Assembly: GCA_016218495.1 (NCBI GenBank) | Contig: JACRDU010000081.1 | Span: forward strand, 1-35,705 | Origin: Elusimicrobiota bacterium | Lineage (GTDB): Bacteria; Elusimicrobiota; Elusimicrobia; UBA1565 | Direction of reading: 5' to 3' | Length of the DNA stretch: 35,705 nt | In this document: piece after piece, positions 1-11,904 of the stretch | How positions within the stretch are numbered: the stretch's first letter is position 1 | Layout of the letters: every line of letters starts with the position of its first letter | Program-made: the position numbers and the translations under genes | The notes under the pieces: model-generated | What the model was told of the DNA's origin: nothing | Databases searched by the model: none | What the model saw: the letters and a program-made list of their open reading frames with translations, nothing else

Positions 1-132
1 GACGCGGACGGGATGGCGGTGGGCAACCAGCGCGGGCTGTGGCTGAAGATGCGCACGCCGCCGTACACCTCGACGGACACGCAGCAGTCGTTCACGGTGA
101 CGGTGACGGCGGTGACGGGCACCGGCCTCTAG
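1..132 (+). CDS. C-terminal end of an unknown, probably secreted beta-rich protein (5' end outside window)
   Basis: Frame 1 is open from the first base to a TAG at 130-132 and encodes the last 43 residues of a protein. The visible tail includes a WLKMRTPP segment and then alternating Thr/Val residues (FTVTVTAVTG), which looks like the last beta strands of an extracellular Ig-like or pilin-like domain. It is followed 85 nt later by a gene for another secreted Ig-like protein on the same strand, so it probably belongs to the same surface-protein cluster. No family can be assigned from this fragment. The reading frame is supported by codon bias (G/C in most third positions) and by position, not by homology. 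Confidence 0.6.
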   Translation, partial: DADGMAVGNQRGLWLKMRTPPYTSTDTQQSFTVTVTAVTGTGL

Positions 133-244: not shown

Positions 245-1126
245 GTGCCGACGGCGTTGGGCGCGGCCCTGCTGTTGGCCGTGGTCGGCGTTGTCCGGGC
301 CGGGGCGACCATCGGACTGTCGTCGCAGTTCGTCAACGTGGCCATGGAGAACCTGGAGCCGGGCAAGTCCTACAACCTGCTCGAGCTGCGCGGGCTCCCC
401 TACACGGTCAAGAACCGCGGCGACGGTCCGGTGGAGGTGCTAGTCGAGATCACCCCGCCGACGACGCAGGAGTGCCTGGCTCCCTACGAGCCGATGCCGG
501 ACGCGTCCTGGATGAGCGTCTCGCCGAGCCGGCTCAGGCTCGACGCCGGCGAGCCTGGGTTCGCGGCGCTGACCATCGACGTGCCCAACGACCCCAAGTT
601 CGTCGGGCGGCACTTCCAGGGCCAGGTCTGGGCCCACACGCTGGGCACGGGCCTGCTGGCGGCCGGGGTGAGGAGCAACATCCGCTTCTCCATCGGCAAG
701 GGGCCTGAGACCCTGGAGGCGGAGGCGCATGAGAAGCAGATGGTGGCGCTCAACTACGAGCTGTGGCCGGCGGCGCTGTATGTGACCAAGGCCAGGGCCG
801 GGGCCTACGAGCCGGCCAAGGAAGAGGGGCGGCAGTTCGTGCTCACCAACCGCTCCGAAGAGCCGCTGGAGCTGGTGGCGACGGCCGTGGCGTGGGAGCG
901 CATGGGCCTGCCGGCGGGCTACGAGGCTCCGAAGGACCTGAGCTGGGTGAAGATCGAGCCCGCCACCGTCAAGGTGGACCCGATCAGCCTGGAGCGGGTG
1001 CGGCTGAAGCTGGATATCCCGGAGCAGTACAAGGGCAAGAAGCTGGCGTTCCTAATCCAGCTCTCGCTGCCCATCGGGACCGTGGTCAACCGCACCAACA
1101 GGGTGCTCGTCGAGGTGGCGCCGTAG
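245..1126 (+). CDS. Secreted protein with two Ig-like beta domains, function unknown
   Basis: The 293-residue product (GTG start) begins with a hydrophobic export segment (residues about 4-18, cleavage probably near VRAGA). Two similar beta-sandwich-like halves follow, about 30-160 and 170-293. Each half contains a P-x-x-L/V-x-V/L-D strand and then an IDVPN or LDIPE stretch, as in bacterial Ig-like surface domains of the kind seen in DUF916/WxL-type or NEW3-type proteins. I cannot assign a named family. The true start is in doubt because ATG 218, with a good Shine-Dalgarno, is in frame but separated by a TAG at 239-241. The gene lies 47 nt before the giant fibronectin-III gene, so a role as a surface or cell-envelope partner of that protein is plausible but unproven. 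Confidence 0.75.
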   Translation: MPTALGAALLLAVVGVVRAGATIGLSSQFVNVAMENLEPGKSYNLLELRGLPYTVKNRGDGPVEVLVEITPPTTQECLAPYEPMPDASWMSVSPSRLRLDAGEPGFAALTIDVPNDPKFVGRHFQGQVWAHTLGTGLLAAGVRSNIRFSIGKGPETLEAEAHEKQMVALNYELWPAALYVTKARAGAYEPAKEEGRQFVLTNRSEEPLELVATAVAWERMGLPAGYEAPKDLSWVKIEPATVKVDPISLERVRLKLDIPEQYKGKKLAFLIQLSLPIGTVVNRTNRVLVEVAP

Positions 1127-1173: not shown

Positions 1174-4100
1174 ATGAGCGACGGGCGAACCTCGCTCGGG
1201 ACCGGCGCGAAGCTCGCGTCAGGCGCCGCTCGGCTGAAATCAGCCGTGGCGGTGTTCCTGGCCGGCTGGCTCGTGCTGTCCCCGTTCGCCCAGGCTCTGG
1301 CCCTCGACCCCAACCCCGGCAACAGCGCGGGGGCCTTCCCCGTGCGCGTGGCCCCCAACGACGTCTATCCCCCCGTCCCGGTCAACGACCTGAGCGCCGT
1401 CTCCGGCGCGGTCGGACAGGCGCTGGTGCAGTGGACGGCGCCCGACGAGTCGCACGGGATGTCCGCCAAGGCCAACGTCCCGGTGGTGAGCTATCAGGTC
1501 CGCATCGCCACCTTCTCGGTGCTGGACCTGGGCGGGAACACCACCTCGTGGTTCAACGCCGCGACGCCGCTGCCCTCTCCCGTGGTGCAGCTGCCCGGCA
1601 ACGCTCAGGCCGTGATGACGAGCCTGGAGCCGGGACCGACCTACTTCCTGGCCGTCAAGAGCGTGGACGACTCGGCGAACGTGTCGGACGTGGACAGCGA
1701 CACCCATGGCATCGCCACCCAGCCCAACGTGAAGGTGAAGGGCATCGCCGGCGTGACCGACCTGACCGCCGTCACCGGGGTCCTGTCGGGCGAGGTCAAC
1801 CTGGCCTGGACCGCGCCGCGGCGCCTGGGCCATTTCGACCCGACCGTGTACGAAGTCCGGGCCTCGACCACGGGCCAGATCGCCAATCCGGCCCAGTTCG
1901 ACGCGGCCCGGCCGTTGTCGGCCTTCTCCCCCTCCCCCATCCCGGGAGCAGGGTCGCCCGGGACGCTGCACAGCATGACGGTGACGGGCCTGGTGCCGAG
2001 CGCCACCTACTACTTCGCGGTGCGCGCGGTGGACAGCGGCCTGCCCCCGTTTACGGGCGTCTGGCAGCGCAACGTGCCCGCCGGCCTCAATCCGCTCAAC
2101 GTCGCCTCGGCCCGATTCAACCCCGGGCGGCCCGACGCCGTCACCGACCTGACCGCCCTGCCCGGCGGCGCGCCGGGTCAAATCGCCCTGACCTGGACCG
2201 CCCCCAAGAACCCCAACGGCGTCCCGATGAAGGACTACGTCATCCAGATGAGCACCTCCAGCGTGGCCGACTACGCCGGGGACACCACGACCTGGTTCAA
2301 CACCGGCTCCTCCATCACCTTCGGCTTCACCCCGGTCGGCGCCCCCGGCGCCCGCGAGGCCCTGACCATCACGAACCTCTACCAGGATTTCGGCACCCTC
2401 TTCTTCTTCGGCCTGGTCAGCCGCGACGCCATCGGCGAGACCTCCTTCATCGACTTGGGCGCGGCGGGGGGCTTTCAGGCCAAATCCCGGCCCCGCCCCA
2501 CGCCGCCCATCATCAACGTGACGGCGGTGGCGGTCTCCACCGAATCCGGGCGCATCGACCTGACCTGGACGGCCCCCGACGTCACGGGCATGGTCTCCCC
2601 CGTCGTCTACGACATCCGCGCCTCCACCACGGCCAACATGGACGACAACGCGGCCTTCGACGCGGCCCGGCCGCTGAGCGCGTTCTCGTTCTCCCAGGCC
2701 CCGGCCGTCTCCAGCGGCACGCCCACCTTCATGAGCGTCACGGGCCTGGCCCCGCTGGCGACCTACTACTTCGCCATCCGCACCGCGGACTCGAACCCCA
2801 ACAGCGCCGTCCGCAGTGACTGGGTCCGCGTCAGCACGGCCGGCATCAACCCGCTCAACTTCGCCGTCGCCCCGCTCATCCCGGGCGACCCCGACGCCGT
2901 CACCGACCTCTCCGGCCTGCCCGGGGCGCAGAACGGCGAGCTGGCGCTGTCTTGGACGGCTCCCCGCAACGCCAACTTCACCCCCATCGCCTCCTACCAG
3001 GTCGCCTTCGCCACCTTCGCCCCGGCCGAGCTGGGCGGCGACGCCACGGCCTGGTTCCTGGCCGCCTCCTCGGCGGCCCTCGCTCCGGCGGGACCGCCCG
3101 GCGCCGCCGAGGCCTTCACCCTGAGCGGCCTGGAGGCCGGCTCCCTCTACACGCTGGCGGTGCGCGCCGTCGACGCCCTGGGCCGGACCGCTCCGCTGGC
3201 CCCAGCCCAGCCCGTCGCGCGCAGCCGCGGCATCGGCCCGGTGACCGACCTGGCCGCCGCGCCGGACGGGGCGTCGGGGGCCGTCGACCTGACCTGGACC
3301 GTGCCCTACCGCGTACTGACGACCGCCCCGCACCGTTACGACATCCGGGTCTCCACCACGGGGAACCTGGCCGATTCCGCGGCTTTCTCCGCCGCCAAGC
3401 CGCTGAGCGCCTTCACCTCCGCCCCGGCCCCCGCGGTGGGGACGGCCGGCGGGCGCGAGACCGTGACCCTGACCGGCCTCCAGCCGTTCACCACCTACTT
3501 CTTCGCCGTAGCGGTGGAGGACTCCTCGGCCCCGGTCAAGTCGCTGGGCGCCTGGTCGCGCCTGGGCGGACGCAACACGACGAACTTCGCCGTGCCCAGC
3601 TTCGCCTACGCCGAGCCCGACCCCATCAGCGACCTGACCAGCCTGCCGGGGGCCCTGGCCGGCGAACTGCGCCTGGAGTGGACGGCGCCGCGCAACCAGA
3701 ACTTCATCCCCATCTCCAGCTACACCGTGCGCGGGGCGACCTTCACGCCCGCGGCGCTGGGCGGGGACGCCACCGCCTGGTTCAACGCGGCCACTTTGGA
3801 CTACACCTACTATCCGGCGAACCTGCCCGGGACGAAGGAGTCTTTGGTCCTGAGCGGCCTCGCGCCCGGGGAGCAGTACTTCTTCGGCCTGCGCGCCTTC
3901 GACCAGCTCGGCGAGGCGGGCCACCTCGACGCCGGTCTCGACCCGTCCAACCCCCTGCCCCAGGTGTCGGGCCGTCCGCGCGGCGTGGGCGCCGTCACCG
4001 ACCTTGTGGCGTCCCCGGACGGTGCGGCGGGGTCGGTGGACCTGACCTGGACCGCTCCTTTCCGGGTCCTGCCGGTGGGCCCCGAGCGCTATGCGGTCAA

Positions 4101-6147
4101 GGTCTCGACTCTGGGCCAGATCGCCAACGACGCCCAGTTCGCGGCGGCGAAACCCCTGTCGGCCTTCTCGGGCTCCCCCCTCCCCGTCCCCTCGGCGGGC
4201 TCTTATAAGGAAGCGCTCAACATCACCGGCCTGGCCCTGTTCACCACCTACTACTTCGCGGTCCGGGTGGAGGACTCCTCGGCCACGGTGAACGCCGGCA
4301 AGTGGCTGCGCGACACCCTGCTGGCGCGCAACACCGCCAACTTCACCGTGCCGAAGTTCTTCTACAGCCTACCCGAGCCCGTTTCCGATCTGACGGCGCT
4401 CGCCGGCCTGGTGGAAGGAGAGGTGAGGCTGACCTGGACGGCCCCGCGCAACATCAACCTCATCCCCATCTCCCGCTACGAGGTGCGCTTCGCCACCTTC
4501 CCGGTCTCCGCCCTGGCCAACGACGCCACGGCCTGGTTCGAAGCGGCCCCATCCTCGGCGGCCGTCGCCACGGCGCAGGCGCCCGGAGCGCTGGAGCAGC
4601 TCAGCATCGGCGGGCTCTATCCGCTCTCCACCTTCTACTTCGCGGTGCGCTCGGTGGACGCGCTGGGGGAGGTCTCCTTCGTGGACACCGGGGCCGACCC
4701 GTCCGACCCGGCGGTGCAGGCCTCCACGCGGCCGCTGAACCTGCCCCCGGGCACGCCTTCGGGACTGAGCGCTGCGTCGGCCATGAAGCGGGCGATCGTT
4801 TCGTGGAGCGACCTGCCGGCGGGGCTGACCGGCGCCGGCAAGGGCCTGGACTTCGCCCATTACCGCATCGAGCGTTCCACCGACGACATCGTGTTCACGA
4901 AGGTCACGACCCAGACCGCGTTCTCCTATATCGACCGTCCTTTGACCGCTGAGACCAGCTATTACTTCCGCGTCACCGCGCGCGACCTGGGTGGGCTGGA
5001 GAGTTCGCCGTCGGCCTCGGTCTCGGCGCTGCCCTTCACCTTGGCGCCGCAAGAGCCCTTCGGGCTCGACTTCAGCCGCAACGGTTCCTCCGTCACCCTG
5101 TCCTGGACCCCGACCAGGCGCTTCGAGACCACCGAGCCCTTCTACGACCCCGCGAACCCGGCCACGGACGAGCTCAAGGGCTACCAGGTCTACCGTTCCA
5201 CCGGCAGCTGTTCGCCGTACTCGCTGTTCGCCAGCTACGGGCTCGCGGTCACCAGCCACACCGAGGCCGACCTCGGCCAGGCGAACTTCTACAAGGTCAT
5301 GGCGTACAACGACTTCAAGGTGTCCACGGGAGCCGTCATCCTGTCGCCCTTCGGCGACCAGCTCTACACCTTGCCGGATTGCGCCTCGCAGGTGGTAATC
5401 GATGAAAAACTGACTTCGAAGCTGCTCAAGGGCACGAACGGCCTGAATGAAGACATCTATCTCAAGCGCAGCTACCACACCGAGGAGAACGGGGGCGAGG
5501 TGCTGCAGACCGTCGAGTTCACCCCGCTCTCGGGCGGCGCGACGCCGGTCAAGAACTTCGCTTTCGCCAAGCCGGTGCGCGTCACGCTGCGCTATCAGGT
5601 GGACGCCCAGGGCGTCCCCACTCCGGCCACCGCCCAGGCCGTGGCCCAGGACGCTTCACTGGCGGGCCAGGGAGTGAGCCTCCAGGCGCTCGGCACTGCG
5701 GCCTCCGCCGGGGACGCCAAGGACCTCGGTGTCTATTGGAACGACGGCAAGGAGTACAAGAAGCTCTACGGCCAGGTGGACACCAACGACCAGACCGTCA
5801 CCGTCCAGACCCCGAACCTGGGCAGCTTCCAGGTCCGCCGCGTGTTCCGCGACTCGGCGGCCACCTTCGACCTCTCGAACATCACCACCCGGGTGGTCAC
5901 GCCCAACGCCGACGGCAAGAACGACCTGATGATCATGATCTTCGACAACCCGCGCGGGGCCGCCATCAACGGCAAGATTTACGACCTGCGCGGGGCCTAC
6001 GTCGCCACGATGGCCCCGGGTCCGCTGCCCAACTCCCTGCAGTGGGACGGCATGATGAACGGCAAGGTGGTCACCAGCGGCGTCTACATCTACCAGGTGG
6101 AAGGCGACGGGAAGCTCTTCAACGGGACGATGGTAATAGCTAGATAA
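1174..6147 (+). CDS. Giant secreted fibronectin type III repeat protein with C-terminal FlgD-like Ig domain
   Basis: 1657 residues. A long-n-region signal peptide (about 1-43, ending AQALA) is followed by about eleven fibronectin-III-like domains from residue 70 to about 1400. The first nine begin with a D-L-x-A/S...L-x-W-T-A-P strand pattern and contain G-L-x-P-x-T-x-Y-x-F-A-V-R-x-x-D. They alternate between two subtypes. Domains 10 and 11 are more divergent, and a region without recognisable repeats covers about 1400-1565. The C-terminus (about 1565-1657) carries VTPNADGKND, IYDLRG, WDGMMNG and SGVYIYQVEG, the pattern of FlgD-type Ig (PF13860) and gliding-associated CHU_C-like domains. The family suggests an exported surface adhesin or polysaccharide-binding protein; no catalytic domain was seen. 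The stop is TAA, followed at once by a second in-frame TAA. Three genes downstream reinforce a surface-export context. Confidence 0.9.
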   Translation: MSDGRTSLGTGAKLASGAARLKSAVAVFLAGWLVLSPFAQALALDPNPGNSAGAFPVRVAPNDVYPPVPVNDLSAVSGAVGQALVQWTAPDESHGMSAKANVPVVSYQVRIATFSVLDLGGNTTSWFNAATPLPSPVVQLPGNAQAVMTSLEPGPTYFLAVKSVDDSANVSDVDSDTHGIATQPNVKVKGIAGVTDLTAVTGVLSGEVNLAWTAPRRLGHFDPTVYEVRASTTGQIANPAQFDAARPLSAFSPSPIPGAGSPGTLHSMTVTGLVPSATYYFAVRAVDSGLPPFTGVWQRNVPAGLNPLNVASARFNPGRPDAVTDLTALPGGAPGQIALTWTAPKNPNGVPMKDYVIQMSTSSVADYAGDTTTWFNTGSSITFGFTPVGAPGAREALTITNLYQDFGTLFFFGLVSRDAIGETSFIDLGAAGGFQAKSRPRPTPPIINVTAVAVSTESGRIDLTWTAPDVTGMVSPVVYDIRASTTANMDDNAAFDAARPLSAFSFSQAPAVSSGTPTFMSVTGLAPLATYYFAIRTADSNPNSAVRSDWVRVSTAGINPLNFAVAPLIPGDPDAVTDLSGLPGAQNGELALSWTAPRNANFTPIASYQVAFATFAPAELGGDATAWFLAASSAALAPAGPPGAAEAFTLSGLEAGSLYTLAVRAVDALGRTAPLAPAQPVARSRGIGPVTDLAAAPDGASGAVDLTWTVPYRVLTTAPHRYDIRVSTTGNLADSAAFSAAKPLSAFTSAPAPAVGTAGGRETVTLTGLQPFTTYFFAVAVEDSSAPVKSLGAWSRLGGRNTTNFAVPSFAYAEPDPISDLTSLPGALAGELRLEWTAPRNQNFIPISSYTVRGATFTPAALGGDATAWFNAATLDYTYYPANLPGTKESLVLSGLAPGEQYFFGLRAFDQLGEAGHLDAGLDPSNPLPQVSGRPRGVGAVTDLVASPDGAAGSVDLTWTAPFRVLPVGPERYAVKVSTLGQIANDAQFAAAKPLSAFSGSPLPVPSAGSYKEALNITGLALFTTYYFAVRVEDSSATVNAGKWLRDTLLARNTANFTVPKFFYSLPEPVSDLTALAGLVEGEVRLTWTAPRNINLIPISRYEVRFATFPVSALANDATAWFEAAPSSAAVATAQAPGALEQLSIGGLYPLSTFYFAVRSVDALGEVSFVDTGADPSDPAVQASTRPLNLPPGTPSGLSAASAMKRAIVSWSDLPAGLTGAGKGLDFAHYRIERSTDDIVFTKVTTQTAFSYIDRPLTAETSYYFRVTARDLGGLESSPSASVSALPFTLAPQEPFGLDFSRNGSSVTLSWTPTRRFETTEPFYDPANPATDELKGYQVYRSTGSCSPYSLFASYGLAVTSHTEADLGQANFYKVMAYNDFKVSTGAVILSPFGDQLYTLPDCASQVVIDEKLTSKLLKGTNGLNEDIYLKRSYHTEENGGEVLQTVEFTPLSGGATPVKNFAFAKPVRVTLRYQVDAQGVPTPATAQAVAQDASLAGQGVSLQALGTAASAGDAKDLGVYWNDGKEYKKLYGQVDTNDQTVTVQTPNLGSFQVRRVFRDSAATFDLSNITTRVVTPNADGKNDLMIMIFDNPRGAAINGKIYDLRGAYVATMAPGPLPNSLQWDGMMNGKVVTSGVYIYQVEGDGKLFNGTMVIAR
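1381..4740 (+). repeat. Nine diverged fibronectin-III coding repeats arranged as A-B super-repeats
   Basis: Domain starts fall near 1381, 1750, 2132, 2509, 2890, 3235, 3619, 3985 and 4373. Odd-numbered copies (type A) carry ATF...LGGDATAWFNAA in their middle. Even-numbered copies (type B) carry STTGQIAN-AQF-AA-PLSAFS. The A-to-A distance is about 730-760 bp, so the unit of duplication appears to be an A-B pair of about 250 residues, present four times plus a final A. Copies are diverged at the DNA level, so this is an old expansion rather than a simple recent tandem repeat. Boundaries are approximate. Confidence 0.8.
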
Positions 6148-6161
6148 TAATGGAGAATTCG

Positions 6162-6641
6162 ATGAAAACTCGCGAAAATTTCGCTGGCGAAACCCTGCTT
6201 CACGCGGCACTCTATGGCGTGGGCATCCTCCTCGCGGCGTTCTTGGCCCTTACCCTAGAGACCGGCCGGGCTCATGCGGCCGGGGGCGACTTCTCCTTTC
6301 AGGGTTACCTGAACCGGATCGTCACCCCTAATGGCGACCTGAAGAACGACCTCGCCATCCTCTGCGTCGACAACCCCAAGGACTTCGCTGTGCGCGGCCG
6401 CATCTTCGACCTGCGCGGGCACGTCGTCACCGAGATGTTCCTGCAGCTCGATCCGACCTTCGCCCTTGGAGCCACGAAGCCCGTCGTCCAGTGCCGCGCC
6501 AGCTTCCCCGGCCAGTTCAAGCCCCAGGCCCTGACCTGGGACGGGCGCGCGAACGGGACGGCCGTGACGAACGGGGTCTACATCTGGCGCATCGAGGCGG
6601 AAGAGACCGCGGTCACGGGGACCGTGGTGGTGGCGCGGTGA
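6162..6641 (+). CDS. Small secreted protein consisting mainly of a FlgD-like C-terminal domain
   Basis: 159 residues. ATG 6162 is chosen over ATG 6150 because GGAGA (6152-6156) sits at good Shine-Dalgarno distance from it. A signal peptide with a hydrophobic core (about residues 17-33, cleavage near AHA-AGG) is followed by a domain with VTPNGDLKND, DNPKDF, IFDLRG, LTWDGRANGTAVTNGVYIW and a final VVVAR. These match, in the same order, the last 90 residues of the preceding giant protein (VTPNADGKND, DNPRGA, IYDLRG, WDGMMNGKVVTSGVYIY, MVIAR). The gene is therefore close to a free-standing copy of that C-terminal module, probably by duplication. A role in surface anchoring or assembly is inference. 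Its stop codon is 5 nt before the next start. Confidence 0.85.
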   Translation: MKTRENFAGETLLHAALYGVGILLAAFLALTLETGRAHAAGGDFSFQGYLNRIVTPNGDLKNDLAILCVDNPKDFAVRGRIFDLRGHVVTEMFLQLDPTFALGATKPVVQCRASFPGQFKPQALTWDGRANGTAVTNGVYIWRIEAEETAVTGTVVVAR

Positions 6642-6646
6642 ACGCC

Positions 6647-8662
6647 ATGAGAAACTGCAAGAAAATCCTGCTTCTCTTGACCCTGGCCGCCGCCCATTGC
6701 GACAATGCCCGCATGGCGCGCGCGGCCTATGACGACGTCGGAGTCGGAGCCCGGGTCACCGGCCTGGGCGGGGCCTTCACGGCCATGGCCGACGACGTCT
6801 ACTCGGTCTACTACAACCCGGCCGGCCTGGGGACCCTGGACCGCCCGATGCTGGGCACGACCTACTCGCGCCTGCACATGGGCCTCTCCGACGACTCCTC
6901 TTTGCAGAACTCCTTCCTCGCCTTCGCCGCGCCCATCAAGCACGGGCGGCACGGGGCCTGGGGGACGGCCTTCAACTACTTCACGCTGGACTCGCTCTAC
7001 AGCGAGACCAGCCTCTACGGCTCCTACGGCCGGCGCCTGTTCGCCGACCAGCTCCCCAACGGGTTCTACGCCGGCGCCTCGCTCAAGATGCTGCGCCGCT
7101 CGCTGAGCGGCACCGACGTGGCCGACAACGCGGTCAGCAATACCGGCGCGCGCCTGGGCACGCCGGACCCGGTGCTCCAGAACGCGTCGAAGACGAACCT
7201 CGACATGGACCTGGGCTTCCTGTACCGCATCCGCCCGCGCCTGTCGGCGGGCCTGATGGTCCAGCACCTGACGGAGCCCAACATCGCCTTCGCCTCCAAC
7301 GACACCGACGCGCTGGGCCGCAACGTCAAGCTGGGCCTGGCCTGGCAGACGGGCTGGACCTCCATCGCCGGGGAGTTCGACCTCCTGAAGGCCCCCAACG
7401 GCTCCACCGACAAGGTCGGCACCCTGGCCTTCGAGAAGTGGCTGCCGACCCTGGTCCACGGCAGCTTCGGGGTGCGCAGCTCGGTGGGCGTGGGCTCGCG
7501 CGAGTTCCGCCAGCTGACGGCGGGCCTGTCCTACCGCATCCACCGCCTCCAGTTCGACTACGGCTTCACCCTCCCCATCGGCACCATCCAGGACACCTTC
7601 GGAACGCACCGGATGGGGCTGAGCATGCGCTTCGGCCGCCCGCGCGGCACGGAGCCCCAGATGGCCGAGGCCATCCTCGAGAACCTGCGCGACCTGGCCG
7701 ATGTGAACAGCCCCGAGTTCCGCGCGCAGTCCGAGGAGCTGGCGCTCTACAAGCGCACCGCGCAGGTCGAATTCCTGCGCCAGGCGCGCGTCGACACCGG
7801 CGAGGGCCGCTTCGCCGAGGCGCGCGAGAAGCTGTCCCAGGCCCTGGGCCTCAACCCCAAGGACCTACGCCTCCAGGCCAGCCTGGAGCGCATGTCCCTG
7901 GCCGCCGAGGTCTTCCCCGAGGTGCAGGGCTTTCGCACCGACCCGGCCCAGGCCGCGCTCTACGAAGGCGTGATGGACTTCCTGGCCGGCCGGGAGAAGG
8001 ATGCCGTGCGCAAGCTGACCTACGCGGCCAGCCTCAACCCCGCCGACGAGCGCTATGAGCGGCTGCTGCAGACCGCCGAACGCAAGGCCGGCATCACACG
8101 GGAGCTCCCCACCGCCGCGGCGGCGACGGCGCCGACCATGGGCCGCGAGAAGGCCGTGGGCGCGAGCATGGCCCTGATGGAGGTCGCGCTGCGCGAATCC
8201 GACTACGCCAAGGTGGTCAAGCTGGCCGACGAGGTCCTCGAGCTCGACCCCCAGAGCGTGCTGGCCTACAAGCGCAAGGCCACGGCGCTCTACGCCGGGA
8301 AGAAGTACGAGGAGGCCCTCCGGGCCTTGCGGGCCGGCTACAAGTTCGAGCGGGACGCCGAGGAGCGCAAGCGCCTGAAGGCCTATGTGGACGCGCTGGT
8401 CTCGCTCATCGAGCGCAAGTCCCGCGAGAAGGAGGAGCCGGCCGCGGCGGCCCTGCCCAAGCCCGAGGCGCGCCCGAGCGGGGTCAGCCCCGTCGAGGTG
8501 CAGCGCCTCTACGAGGCGGGCGTGGACCTCTACGCGCAGGGACGCCTTAGCGAGGCGGCCAACATGTTCCAGCGCATCCTGACCATGGATCCGAAGAACG
8601 CCTCGGCCCAGCGCGCCCTGCGGCGGGTGCAGGCCGAGATCCTCACCGGGGGCTCTCAGTAG
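6647..8662 (+). CDS. PorV/UPF0164-like outer-membrane beta-barrel fused to a TPR domain
   Basis: 671 residues from ATG 6647 (GTG 6638 is an alternative; neither has a strong Shine-Dalgarno). A signal peptide (MRNCKKILLLLTLAAA, cleavage probably after ARMARA) leads into VGVGARVTGLGGAFTAMADD and YYNPAGL. This is the N-terminal signature of FadL/PorV/UPF0164-type barrels. The barrel runs to about residue 325 (DTFGTHRMGLSMRFG). From about 370 to the end there are at least four TPR-like helical pairs, for example AREKLSQALGLNPKD, ADEVLELDPQSVLAYKRKATALY and LSEAANMFQRILTMDPKN. PorV-type proteins bind and shuttle C-terminal-domain cargo in type IX secretion, and the neighbouring secreted proteins share such a domain. 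The barrel-plus-TPR fusion may be an export or attachment factor, but this is inference. The stop directly abuts the kinase start. Confidence 0.85.
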   Translation: MRNCKKILLLLTLAAAHCDNARMARAAYDDVGVGARVTGLGGAFTAMADDVYSVYYNPAGLGTLDRPMLGTTYSRLHMGLSDDSSLQNSFLAFAAPIKHGRHGAWGTAFNYFTLDSLYSETSLYGSYGRRLFADQLPNGFYAGASLKMLRRSLSGTDVADNAVSNTGARLGTPDPVLQNASKTNLDMDLGFLYRIRPRLSAGLMVQHLTEPNIAFASNDTDALGRNVKLGLAWQTGWTSIAGEFDLLKAPNGSTDKVGTLAFEKWLPTLVHGSFGVRSSVGVGSREFRQLTAGLSYRIHRLQFDYGFTLPIGTIQDTFGTHRMGLSMRFGRPRGTEPQMAEAILENLRDLADVNSPEFRAQSEELALYKRTAQVEFLRQARVDTGEGRFAEAREKLSQALGLNPKDLRLQASLERMSLAAEVFPEVQGFRTDPAQAALYEGVMDFLAGREKDAVRKLTYAASLNPADERYERLLQTAERKAGITRELPTAAAATAPTMGREKAVGASMALMEVALRESDYAKVVKLADEVLELDPQSVLAYKRKATALYAGKKYEEALRALRAGYKFERDAEERKRLKAYVDALVSLIERKSREKEEPAAAALPKPEARPSGVSPVEVQRLYEAGVDLYAQGRLSEAANMFQRILTMDPKNASAQRALRRVQAEILTGGSQ

Positions 8663-10039
8663 ATGACGATCCGCACCAAGCTGACCCTCTCGGTGACGCT
8701 GCTGTTCGCCGTCGCCCTGGGGACCCTGGGTCTGGTCTTCGTCCGCCTGGAGCGCACCCAGCTCGAGGCCAACGCCGCCGACGAGGCCCGCATCATCGTC
8801 AGCACCGTGGAGCGCGCCGCGCGGGACTCCCTGGTCCAGCGCGACGACCTGCTGCTCCTGTCCTACGTCAAGTTCCTGCAGCGGCAGTTCGCCGCGCTGT
8901 CGTACGTGGACGTGTCCTGGGTGGAAGACGACAGGGTCCGTACGAACCACATCGGGCCCGCGGAGGCGTCGGCGTCGGCCGCGGTCCGGAGCCGCCTCGT
9001 GCCCGTCAAGGCCCCGACCACCCCTGGGCGCCAGATCCAGCTCCAGATCGGCATCGACGACGGCTACTTCCAGGACAAGGTCGACGCCCAGCTCGCGCGC
9101 ATCGCGCGGGACCTGGCCCGGCTGTTCGGCATCGCCATCATCGCGGCGGCCCTCTTCTCGGACTGGTTCGCGCGCAAGCTGACGCGTCCGCTGGCGGCCC
9201 TCTCCGAGGTGGCCGGCGAGATCGGGCGCGGGAAGCTCGGCCTGCGCCTCGAGTGGCAGTCCAACGACGAGGTGGGCGCGCTGGTGGCGGGCTTCAACCA
9301 GATGTCCCAGCGCCTCGAAGAGCTCGACGCCATGAAGAAGGACTTCGTCTCCGCCGTCACGCACGAGCTGCGCTCGCCGCTGGGCGCCATCGAGTCGTTC
9401 CTAAACCTGATGGCGGGCAAGATGGTCGGCGGGCGGCCGACGGACCCCGCGCAGTTCCAGACCTACTTCGACCGCATCAAGTCCAACGTCAAGCGCCTGT
9501 CGGGGTTCATCAACGACCTGCTCGACGTGGCGAAGATCGAGCGCGGCAAGATGGAGTGCACGCTGCGCCCGATGCGCCTCCAGGACGTGGCCTCCGAGGT
9601 GGTGCAGTTCTTCGAGGCCAAGTCCAAGGAACAGGGGGTGGCGCTCATCTCGCGCCTGGACGCCAACCTCGGGGCGGTGGACGGCGACCCCGAGCGCCTG
9701 CGCCAGGTCATCGTCAACCTCGTGTCGAACGCGCTCAAGTTCACCCCGCAGGGCGGGTCGATCTGGATCCAGGCGGAGCAGTACCGAGACGCCGCGGCGC
9801 GCTGGCTGGAGGTCTCCGTCATCGACAGCGGCAAGGGCATGGACGCCGAGGACCAGAAGAAGCTCTTCGAGAAGTTCGGGCAGGGCAAGAACGCCAACAC
9901 CCGGGTGACCGGGCCGCGCGGCACGGGCCTGGGCCTCTTCATAGTGAAGTCCATCGTCGAGGCGCACGGCGGGAAGGTCGGGGTGAAGTCCCAGGTCGGG
10001 CGCGGCACGCAGTTCCAATTCTCCGTCAGAATGTCATAA
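8663..10039 (+). CDS. Membrane-bound sensor histidine kinase
   Basis: 458 residues, starting at the base after the TAG of the barrel-TPR gene, so translation is probably coupled. Layout: TM helix about 7-27; a periplasmic sensor of about 125 residues without a recognised domain; TM helix about 153-170; a HAMP linker (about 171-224); HisKA with phospho-acceptor His234 in VTHELRSPL; a HATPase_c domain with N-box NLVSNALKF (351-360), G1 DSGKGM (388-393) and G2 GTGLGL (420-425). All catalytic motifs are intact. It would autophosphorylate and pass phosphate to the receiver gene 67 nt downstream. Its location behind surface-protein genes suggests it senses the envelope, but the signal is unknown. 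Confidence 0.95.
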   Translation: MTIRTKLTLSVTLLFAVALGTLGLVFVRLERTQLEANAADEARIIVSTVERAARDSLVQRDDLLLLSYVKFLQRQFAALSYVDVSWVEDDRVRTNHIGPAEASASAAVRSRLVPVKAPTTPGRQIQLQIGIDDGYFQDKVDAQLARIARDLARLFGIAIIAAALFSDWFARKLTRPLAALSEVAGEIGRGKLGLRLEWQSNDEVGALVAGFNQMSQRLEELDAMKKDFVSAVTHELRSPLGAIESFLNLMAGKMVGGRPTDPAQFQTYFDRIKSNVKRLSGFINDLLDVAKIERGKMECTLRPMRLQDVASEVVQFFEAKSKEQGVALISRLDANLGAVDGDPERLRQVIVNLVSNALKFTPQGGSIWIQAEQYRDAAARWLEVSVIDSGKGMDAEDQKKLFEKFGQGKNANTRVTGPRGTGLGLFIVKSIVEAHGGKVGVKSQVGRGTQFQFSVRMS

Positions 10040-10062: not shown

Positions 10063-10097
10063 ATGGTTGCCTCCCTGCTCCGTTGGAAGGCAACCAT
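10063..10097 (+). promoter_or_regulatory. Intercistronic hairpin between kinase and response-regulator genes
   Basis: ATGGTTGCCT (10063-10072) pairs perfectly with AGGCAACCAT (10088-10097). Two further C-G pairs and a bulge extend the stem inward, leaving a loop of roughly 10 nt. No T-run follows. The 3' arm ends directly before the GGGGAT that can serve as Shine-Dalgarno for ATG 10107. It might set the ratio of regulator to kinase, act as a processing site, or protect the mRNA. The function is inferred from position only. Confidence 0.6.
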
Positions 10098-10106
10098 GGG
10101 GATGCT

Positions 10107-10487
10107 ATGGCGACAAAGGTCCTGGTCGTAGACGACGAAGAGGATTACCGCATCATCATCCGGGACGTCCTGGAGACGGCCGGGGTGGCGGTCGACCTGG
10201 CCGAAGACGGCGAAGCGGGCCTCAAGGCCATGGCCGCCGGCGGCCCCTACGACGCCGTGCTCGTCGACTGGATGATGCCGCGCATGGACGGCGAGACCTT
10301 CGTGCAGAACCTGCGCCGCGACCCCGCCCGCAAGGACACCCCCGTCATCATGCTGACGGTCAAGCAGACCTCCGACGACGAGCTCGAGGCCCTGCACTTC
10401 GGGGTGGACGACTTCATCGTGAAGCCCTTCCAGGCGGAGGACCTCCTGGCCCGCCTGCGCGCCGTGCTGCGGCGGGCCAAGGCCTGA
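10107..10487 (+). CDS. Single-domain response regulator (CheY-like receiver)
   Basis: 126 residues from ATG 10107 (MATKVLVVDDEED), preceded by GGGGATGCT. A complete receiver domain is visible: acidic triad D9/D10 and phospho-acceptor D54 in VLVDWMMPRMDG, T84 in IMLTVK, and K106 in IVKPF. It ends at about the end of alpha-5, with no DNA-binding or enzymatic output domain. It is therefore a CheY- or Spo0F-like stand-alone receiver. The cognate kinase is probably the gene just upstream. It may signal by protein-protein contact or pass phosphate on in a relay; no output protein with a histidine phosphotransfer domain is in the window. Confidence 0.93.
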   Translation: MATKVLVVDDEEDYRIIIRDVLETAGVAVDLAEDGEAGLKAMAAGGPYDAVLVDWMMPRMDGETFVQNLRRDPARKDTPVIMLTVKQTSDDELEALHFGVDDFIVKPFQAEDLLARLRAVLRRAKA

Positions 10488-11038
10488 GGCTGTTCCTGGC
10501 ATGGACCGTGACGGGTCCGGCGGCGGGCGTCCTCGCCCGAGCCGTGGACGCCCTCCGGGCCTGCGCGGCCGACGCCAAATGGAGCGATGACCGGACCTTC
10601 CACGTGACCGCGGCCTTCCTGGGCGAGACCCTGCCCGAGCGGCTGGACGCCCTACGCGCGGCGCTCAGGGCGGCGCACCGCGACGCCCCCCCTCCCGCCG
10701 AGGCGGCCTTCGAGTCCCTGGGGGCGTTCCCCTCGCTCGAGTCCCCGCGCGTGCTCTGGGCGGGCGTCGGACGCGGCGCGGGCGACATGCGCTCGGCCCA
10801 GAGGGCGCTGCTGCGCCGCCTGGGCGAAGCCTCCTTCCCGGTGCCGGACGGCCCTTTCCTCCCGCACACCACGCTCGGCCGCCTGCGCTCGCCGCGCGGG
10901 CGGGAGGCCCTGCTGCGCGCCGCCGAGCCTTGGCGCTCCGCCTCCGCCTGGGCGGGTGCGGACTTCCCCTGCGGGCCGCTGCGCATCGTGGCCAGCCGCC
11001 TGACCCCGGCCGGCCCGGTCCATACGGAGCTTCCATGA
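10484..11038 (+). CDS. thpR: RNA 2',3'-cyclic phosphodiesterase (ThpR / 2'-5' RNA ligase family), apparent CTG start
   Basis: 184 residues. Both HxT motifs of the 2H phosphoesterase superfamily are present: H40-V-T42 in FHVTAAFLGE and H128-T-T130 in LPHTTLGRL. The family normally begins with M-R-L-F-x-A. Here that first strand is encoded as CTG AGG CTG TTC CTG GCA, with CTG 10484 overlapping the TGA of the receiver gene (CTGA). No ATG, GTG or TTG in frame would preserve the strand; the next GTG, at 10508, would remove it. I therefore annotate a CTG start with translational coupling. The enzyme hydrolyses 2',3'-cyclic phosphates on RNA ends, with tRNA as a classical substrate. Its stop overlaps the mltG start (ATGA). 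Confidence 0.85.
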   Translation: MRLFLAWTVTGPAAGVLARAVDALRACAADAKWSDDRTFHVTAAFLGETLPERLDALRAALRAAHRDAPPPAEAAFESLGAFPSLESPRVLWAGVGRGAGDMRSAQRALLRRLGEASFPVPDGPFLPHTTLGRLRSPRGREALLRAAEPWRSASAWAGADFPCGPLRIVASRLTPAGPVHTELP

Positions 11039-11904
11039 AGGGGGTCCTGGCCGCCCTGGCCGCGCTGGGCACGGCGGCCATGCTGGCCGTCTGGTGGCTG
11101 TTCCCCCCGGGGGTGTCGGCCAAGGTGGAGATCCCCGCCGGCCAGTCCGCCTCCGAGACGGCGGCCTTCCTCAAGCGGGAGGGCGTCATCCGCAGCGTGT
11201 CCGCCTTCAAGCGCCTGCATGAGGGCCGCGTCGAATCCGTGCGCGTGGCCATCCCGGAAGGCTTCATGGCCAAGCAGATCGCCGACCGGCTCGAGTCCTC
11301 GGGCATCACCGACGCGGCCTCCTTCATGGCCTATGTCCGGGCCAACAACCTCGAAGGCTACTTGTTCCCCACCACCTACTTCTTCGCCAAAGGGCTCAAG
11401 GCCGAATCGGTCGCCCATCATATGCACGAGGAGTTCAAGGAGAACGCCCTGCCGCTCTTCCAGCGTTCGGGCGAGTCGCGCTATACCCGGCTGCAGGTGG
11501 TGGCGCTGGCCTCCATCGTCCAGCGCGAGGCCCGGACCATCGAGGAGATGCCTCGCATCGCTGCGGTCTACCGCAATCGCCTGGCCAGGCGCATGCGGCT
11601 GGAGGCCGACCCGACCGTCCAGTACGCGCACGGCAAGGACACCGGCGAATGGATGAAGGGGATGCGCTTCAAGCACCTCGATATCGAGTCCCCCTACAAC
11701 ACCTACGCCTATTTCGGACTCCCCCCCGGCCCCATCTGCAGCCCGGGCCTGGACGCCATCGCGGCGGCGCTCTCCCCCGCCAAGGACGACTCGCTCTACT
11801 TCGTGGCCGACGGGGACTCCGGGCGGCACATCTTCTCCAAGACCCTCCTCGAGCACAACGCCGCTATCGCGCGGGTCAAGAAGAAGTCGGCTCCCTCGCG
11901 CTAG
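11035..11904 (+). CDS. mltG: Endolytic murein transglycosylase MltG (YceG-like)
   Basis: 289 residues, ATG overlapping the thpR stop. One N-terminal TM helix (about 4-24) anchors the protein in the inner membrane with the catalytic part outside. A LysM-like region (about 30-75, VEIPAGQSASETAAFLKREGV) precedes the YceG domain, which includes NNLEGYLFPTTYFF, VVALASIVQREA with the likely catalytic Glu165, the MRLEADPTVQYAHG segment, YNTYAYFGLPPGPICSPG and YFVADGDSGRHIFSKT. MltG cleaves nascent glycan strands and helps set their length. The protein is shorter than the E. coli enzyme (about 340 residues) but all conserved blocks are present. It is the last gene of the + strand half and is followed by a strong hairpin. 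Confidence 0.95.
   Translation: MKGVLAALAALGTAAMLAVWWLFPPGVSAKVEIPAGQSASETAAFLKREGVIRSVSAFKRLHEGRVESVRVAIPEGFMAKQIADRLESSGITDAASFMAYVRANNLEGYLFPTTYFFAKGLKAESVAHHMHEEFKENALPLFQRSGESRYTRLQVVALASIVQREARTIEEMPRIAAVYRNRLARRMRLEADPTVQYAHGKDTGEWMKGMRFKHLDIESPYNTYAYFGLPPGPICSPGLDAIAAALSPAKDDSLYFVADGDSGRHIFSKTLLEHNAAIARVKKKSAPSR

What the first reader, a model, noticed from the sequence alone, without database searches (positions are those of the whole stretch)
1174..8662. Candidate surface-export module: shared C-terminal domain, stand-alone copy and a PorV-like barrel fused to TPRs
The giant Fn3 protein and the 159-residue protein end in the same FlgD/CHU_C-like domain (VTPN-D-KND, DLRG, WDG, GVY-Y/W, VAR). 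Directly downstream is a PorV/UPF0164-like barrel that also carries TPRs. In type IX secretion, PorV binds cargo C-terminal domains. Here cargo, a free domain and a receptor-like barrel are co-located without recognisable T9SS motor genes in the window, which could be an undescribed or derived export/attachment system.
Basis: inference. Interest (0 to 1): 0.65.

Follow-up and report, generated by a model that had tools for sequence, protein, structure and literature searches.

The report
Elusimicrobiota type-IX-like cargo–carrier module
This is an operon, conserved across the bacterial phylum Elusimicrobiota, in which a giant adhesin-like protein, a free copy of its export tag and a dedicated outer-membrane carrier barrel are encoded side by side; it suggests that a simplified relative of the type IX secretion system, so far reported only from the Bacteroidota and related (FCB) phyla, works here with one carrier per cargo and no sortase.

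Summary
The order 1657-aa Fn3 protein, 159-aa free C-terminal domain (CTD), PorV-like barrel plus TPRs, histidine kinase, receiver recurs in 18-20 of 20 related genomes. In the window's own genome 19 of 23 PorV-like barrels lie directly behind a CTD-bearing gene, and CTDs and barrels have diverged together (Mantel r 0.67, p 5e-5). [quoted passage not shown] SprA homologues occur in 107 of 120 genomes sampled in the phylum; the window's assembly lacks SprA but also the neighbouring LptG, so an assembly gap is likely. The sortase PorU was not found (with positive controls); motor genes were not detected, but that test is inconclusive. Best reading: a T9SS-like export and retention module with one carrier per cargo, as with Flavobacterium SprB and SprF, here with TPRs fused to the carrier and a secreted stand-alone CTD next to a two-component system. 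A new variant of a known kind, in a phylum outside the reported range of T9SS. Export itself is not shown.

The parts
245..1126 (+). 293-aa protein, no Pfam match; first gene of the conserved block (probably exported; function unknown)
   Evidence: Homologue upstream of the cargo gene in 8 of the 20 relatives' loci examined; others are cut by contig ends or show none; no Pfam match at E 0.01, no PDB match
1174..6147 (+). Giant cargo: 1657 aa, N-terminal hydrophobic segment, Fn3 repeats, C-terminal CTD
   Evidence: PF00041 E 1.3e-52, PF13585, TIGR04131; homologues of about 584 to 2130 aa where not cut by a contig end
5869..6144 (+). C-terminal CHU_C / T9SS type B-like sorting domain of the giant protein (residues 1566-1657)
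6162..6641 (+). Stand-alone CTD protein (159 aa; alternative start 6150): signal peptide to about 6281, then CTD 6285-6638; two cysteines conserved among its direct orthologues
   Evidence: Orthologue in 19 or 20 of 20 relatives' loci; beta-sandwich model pLDDT 87.5
6647..8662 (+). Dedicated carrier: PorV/SprF-like outer-membrane barrel (about 6719-7636, 14 predicted strands) with C-terminal, probably periplasmic TPR domain (about 7712-8650)
8663..10039 (+). Histidine kinase (HAMP, HisKA, HATPase); its start codon directly follows the carrier's stop codon
   Evidence: Pfam; homologue downstream of the carrier in 18 of 20 relatives' loci, a few kb away in two of them
10083..10487 (+). Receiver-only response regulator
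   Evidence: PF00072 E 1.3e-28, no output domain; conserved behind the kinase
10930..11904 (+). YceG/MltG-like protein; conserved neighbour, link to the module uncertain
   Evidence: PF02618 E 4.9e-72

Best explanation
The locus is a type-IX-secretion-like cargo-and-carrier operon of Elusimicrobiota. The Fn3 adhesin is made with a Sec signal and a C-terminal CTD (domain architecture shown; export inferred). It crosses the outer membrane through the phylum's SprA/Sov homologue (homologue shown in relatives; route inferred) and is taken over by the PorV/SprF-like barrel encoded two genes downstream, which keeps it on the surface by holding its CTD (inferred from pairing and homology). Because each cargo has its own barrel and no PorU sortase was found, retention is probably non-covalent, by the carrier, as for type B cargo such as SprB with SprF. 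The TPR domain fused behind strand 14 lies in the periplasm and would anchor or sense, a role that the separate TPR protein PorE has for some Bacteroidota carriers (inferred). The secreted free CTD is a second ligand of the same barrel, most simply a cap or occupancy reporter. With the kinase-receiver pair in the same operon it may tell the cell whether the carrier is loaded (least certain step).
For: Operon conserved across the order. Genome-wide pairing: 23 barrels in the genome, 19 with a CTD gene directly upstream on the same strand; from the CTD side 20 of 22 CTDs, in 19 of 21 loci. In named loci 45 of 47 close barrels and 19 of 29 distant barrels are paired, against 3 of 141 control genes. 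CTD and barrel similarity matrices correlate, Mantel r 0.67, p 5e-5; with near-duplicates removed r 0.41, p 0.001. T9SS homology of all three parts: CTD profile to PorU (E 8e-11), PorZ (7e-9) and FlgD, weaker to substrate CTDs in SprA complexes; barrel profile only to PorV 6h3i_F (E 6e-5) and by fold to FadL and PorV; SprA-like profile only to SprA 6h3i/6h3j (E 1.5e-18). SprA-like in 107 of 120 phylum genomes. PorU-type C25 peptidase in 0 of 11 Elusimicrobiota, with E about 1e-80 in three positive-control genomes. Known precedent: type B cargo with its cognate PorP/SprF carrier gene directly downstream (PMC12618676, PMC9143113).
Against: No SprA in the window's own assembly, though the adjacent LptG is missing too. 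No GldL or GldM detected. The barrel lacks the conserved twin cysteines of SprF's tail. PF13585 and TIGR04131 scores are near or below cut-off. Adjacency and co-divergence could reflect co-duplication without binding. No binding, export or expression data. The free CTD's fold search gave no decisive match.
Confidence: 0.7

Rival explanations
1. Canonical complete T9SS (SprA, GldKLMN, PorU and the rest) that only looks reduced because the motor and ring genes have diverged and the assembly is fragmentary.
For: SprA, CTD and PorV-like parts present; GldL was also not found over cut-off in genomes that carry PorU-type peptidases, so the motor models are weak outside Bacteroidota.
Against: PorU absent with good positive controls; one barrel per cargo rather than one shared PorV; no other T9SS gene recognised in the SprA neighbourhood inspected.
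Confidence: 0.15
2. The barrels are FadL-type transporters for hydrophobic nutrients; the neighbouring surface proteins capture the substrate, and the CTD is only an Ig-like attachment domain.
For: The best fold hits include E. coli FadL; FadL-family transport is common.
Against: Sequence profiles pick PorV alone in the PDB; the pairing is with the CTD, across very different cargo proteins; SprA is co-conserved in the phylum.
Confidence: 0.1
3. The free CTD is a decayed remnant of a second cargo gene rather than a functional part (the rest of the module standing as described).
For: It is a bare signal peptide plus CTD; cargo length varies widely between relatives.
Against: Retained as an intact ORF in 19 or 20 of 20 relatives with signal peptide and, in the direct orthologues, a conserved cysteine pair; stand-alone CTDs also precede the barrel-TPR gene in a second lineage of the phylum (L095-L107).
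Confidence: 0.08

Closest known systems
Type B CTD cargo with cognate PorP/SprF carrier of the Bacteroidota T9SS (SprB-SprF; PG1035-PorP-PorE)
   Same: CHU_C/TIGR04131-like CTD on a giant repetitive adhesin, dedicated FadL-type barrel gene directly downstream, one carrier per cargo, sortase not needed for retention (PMC12618676, PMC9143113)
   Different: Different phylum; TPR domain fused to the carrier; extra stand-alone CTD; kinase-receiver pair in the operon; no twin cysteines in the carrier tail; pairing also covers type A-like (PorU/PorZ/FlgD-like) CTDs
Type A CTD cargo with the shared PorV shuttle and PorU sortase
   Same: CTD family and barrel family by profile
   Different: One shared PorV and PorU there; here many barrels and no PorU found
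PorA and PorXY-SigP signalling of Porphyromonas gingivalis
   Same: A CTD-bearing surface protein linked to a two-component system (PMC7712824)
   Different: PorA carries an N-terminal FimH-like domain; the response regulator here is receiver-only; the parallel is functional inference only

Membership tests
Type IX secretion system | SprA/Sov outer-membrane translocon | tested here: met
   Met in relatives: TIGR04189 whole-protein E 1e-42 to 1e-45, 144-154 bits, below its cut-off of 200; PDB hits only SprA; 107 of 120 genomes. Not found in the window's own assembly
Type IX secretion system | C-terminal sorting domain on cargo | tested here: met
   Profile of the genome's CTDs matches the CTDs of PorU and PorZ, with FlgD next
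Type IX secretion system | PorV/PorP-type 14-stranded carrier barrel | tested here: met
Type IX secretion system | PorU (C25) sortase | tested here: not met
   0 of 11 Elusimicrobiota genomes; E about 1e-80 in three positive-control genomes. Type B cargo does not need it
Type IX secretion system | GldL/GldM proton-driven motor | tested here: inconclusive
   No GldM in 20 genomes and no control rang; GldL nothing over cut-off, controls also negative
Type IX secretion system | GldK/GldN ring | not tested
Type B cargo / SprF carrier pair | Type B CTD (TIGR04131 / PF13585) | tested here: inconclusive
   27 bits against a cut-off of 35 for TIGR04131; PF13585 24.6 or 28 bits against 27; a homologue in L095 reaches 31.6
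Type B cargo / SprF carrier pair | Cognate PorP/SprF-like gene directly downstream of cargo | tested here: met
   PF11751 47.3 bits over a cut-off of 22.3; pairing
Type B cargo / SprF carrier pair | Twin cysteines in the carrier's periplasmic tail (SprF, for linkage to GldK) | tested here: not met
   No conserved cysteine in the tail across 27 homologues; the feature belongs to gliding carriers (PMC12635249)
PorXY regulators | PorX-type response regulator with an output domain | tested here: not met
   Receiver domain only, 134 aa

The most novel reading that the evidence does not exclude
Elusimicrobiota run a sortase-free T9SS relative in which every surface protein, whether its CTD is type A-like or type B-like, has its own dedicated carrier that doubles as its anchor, energised by something other than GldLM, and in this operon the carrier's loading state is reported by a free CTD to a two-component system.
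Probability: 0.3. Interest if true: 0.82.

Novelty: new variant of a known kind. Interest (0 to 1): 0.66.

Why it matters
[quoted passage not shown] A near-universal SprA homologue with about twenty CTD-carrier pairs per genome in Elusimicrobiota would widen the range of the system, suggest that dedicated carriers may be older or commoner than the shared PorV/PorU route, and give a natural panel of cognate pairs for learning how carriers recognise their cargo. The free CTD with kinase and receiver makes a question about sensing of secretion directly testable.

Tried and rejected
A single SprA-like protein against the PDB gave nothing; the profile did. Pfam on the SprA-like protein gave nothing. 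GldM and GldL searches gave no usable answer because no control rang. The free-CTD fold search gave only generic Ig-like hits. The 293-aa protein has no Pfam or PDB match. Loss of SprA in this species was considered and set aside as unlikely because the adjacent LptG, normally essential, is missing too. The C5a-peptidase hits of the CTD profiles were taken as generic FlgD/Ig-like similarity, since PorU and PorZ score far better. Expansion of the Fn3 gene by recent tandem duplication was not supported (no tandem array in the gene). One further family scan failed on a coordinate error and was not repeated.

Full report
Observation. The window is a complete 35,705-base contig (C48) of a 4.15-Mb, 165-contig, 95% complete assembly. 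The three reported ORFs are real coding genes. The 1657-aa protein has Fn3 repeats and ends in a CHU_C/type B-like CTD; the 159-aa protein is a signal peptide plus the same domain (39% identity over 116 residues, E 2e-23); the third is a PorV/PorP-like barrel followed by TPRs. A histidine kinase starts on the base after the barrel gene's stop codon and a receiver-only regulator follows. The rest of the contig is mostly the cell-wall (dcw) cluster and tRNA synthetases.

Lineage. Named loci that encode close relatives of the barrel are nearly all Elusimicrobia metagenome assemblies.

Conserved operon. In 20 regions taken from related genomes of the same order, the order cargo, free CTD, barrel-TPR, kinase, receiver recurs, apart from regions cut by contig ends and two in which the kinase lies some kilobases further on. 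Cargo length varies widely while its CTD is kept. In L053 and L065 the free CTD was recognised by its match to the giant's CTD. The free CTD keeps its signal peptide and two cysteines among direct orthologues. A second, more distant Elusimicrobia group has a free CTD directly before a barrel-TPR gene, with a further CTD protein divergently encoded.

Genome-wide pairing. The barrel profile finds 23 distinct barrels in the window's genome; 19 have an ORF ending in a CTD immediately upstream on the same strand, with the CTD stop 50-180 bases before the matched barrel start in the 18 outside the window. The four exceptions are two near contig ends and two with unrelated neighbours. From the other side, the CTD profile finds 22 C-terminal CTDs, one weak internal match apart; only two are not next to a barrel, a subtilase and a 3789-aa protein. 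In loci from named genomes, 45 of 47 close barrels and 19 of 29 distant barrels have such a CTD gene, against 3 of 141 control genes in the same loci. CTD and barrel similarities correlate across the genome's pairs, also after removing near-duplicates. This shows that pairs move and diverge as units; it does not by itself prove binding.

Relation to T9SS. Three independent profiles point at the same machine: the barrel profile's only PDB match is PorV, the SprA-like profile's only matches are SprA, and the CTD profile's best matches are the terminal CTDs of PorU and PorZ, then FlgD. The SprA-like protein is found in 35 of 38 relatives with the NCBI model and in 107 of 120 genomes across the phylum with the profile; of the 13 without it, one is the window's own genome and 12 belong to one family of mostly small genomes. 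Genomes without SprA mostly lack barrels too (Fisher p 1.2e-4, not corrected for shared ancestry, and the barrel threshold misses distant barrels). The window's own assembly has no SprA, but LptG, its near neighbour in the closest relative, is missing too, which points to an assembly gap.

What is missing. PorU-type C25 peptidases are absent from 11 Elusimicrobiota genomes and clear in a Calditrichaeota, a Zixibacteria and an FCB-group genome. GldM and GldL were not detected, but no control rang for GldM, and GldL was not found over cut-off even in those three genomes, so nothing follows. GldK/N were not tested.

Carrier structure. The AlphaFold2 model (mean pLDDT 79, pTM 0.47) has an N-terminal plug-like stretch, 14 strands and a helical TPR tail; with an even strand count the tail should face the periplasm (inference). 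Fold matches are FadL and PorV, PorV with the higher target-normalised TM-score (0.58-0.60 against 0.38-0.50 for FadL). The other paired barrels of the genome are shorter, 275-490 aa from the matched start (one cut by its contig end), so the TPR fusion marks this locus and its relatives.

Mechanism. By homology and by the Flavobacterium precedent, in which a porP/sprF-like gene directly downstream encodes the cargo's own carrier (PMC12618676) and the cargo stays bound to it (PMC9143113), the best reading is a dedicated cargo-carrier pair served by the SprA homologue. The role of the free CTD as cap or loading reporter for the adjacent two-component system is a hypothesis; PG1035 as a suggested cap of PorP (PMC9143113) and PorA in PorXY signalling (PMC7712824) are parallels, not evidence.

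Membership. The translocon, the CTD signal and the carrier are met; PorU is tested and not met; the motor is inconclusive. The locus is therefore described as T9SS-like and not filed as a canonical T9SS.

Novelty. Searches of the open literature library found no paper describing T9SS in Elusimicrobiota, and a 2024 paper says T9SS genes are absent outside FCB phyla (PMC11285876). Subscription papers and preprints were not searchable, so priority is not established.

Noticed in passing
G000 contigs C139, C119, C43, C32, C122, C109, C59: CTD-bearing open frames of 4,366 to 8,191 aa, each next to its own PorV-like barrel; a large repertoire of giant surface proteins.
   Followed up: partly
L172 (G000 contig C110): A PorV-like barrel gene diverges from a TPR protein gene and a histidine kinase gene whose HELRSPLGAI motif resembles the window's kinase, so barrel, TPR and kinase are associated a second time in this genome.
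   Followed up: no
window 1-132: C-terminal end of another protein cut by the contig start, upstream of the 293-aa gene; may be one more member of the operon.
   Followed up: no
L126 (Spirochaetes), L128 (FCB group), L133 (Nitrospira), L154 (Calditrichaeota): CTD gene followed by a PorV-like barrel also outside Elusimicrobiota; three such pairs within 10 kb in the Spirochaetes locus.
   Followed up: partly
G000 contig C35, 5791-6039 (L192): Subtilase with a Por_Secre_tail/FlgD-like CTD but no barrel next to it: an orphan cargo.
   Followed up: partly
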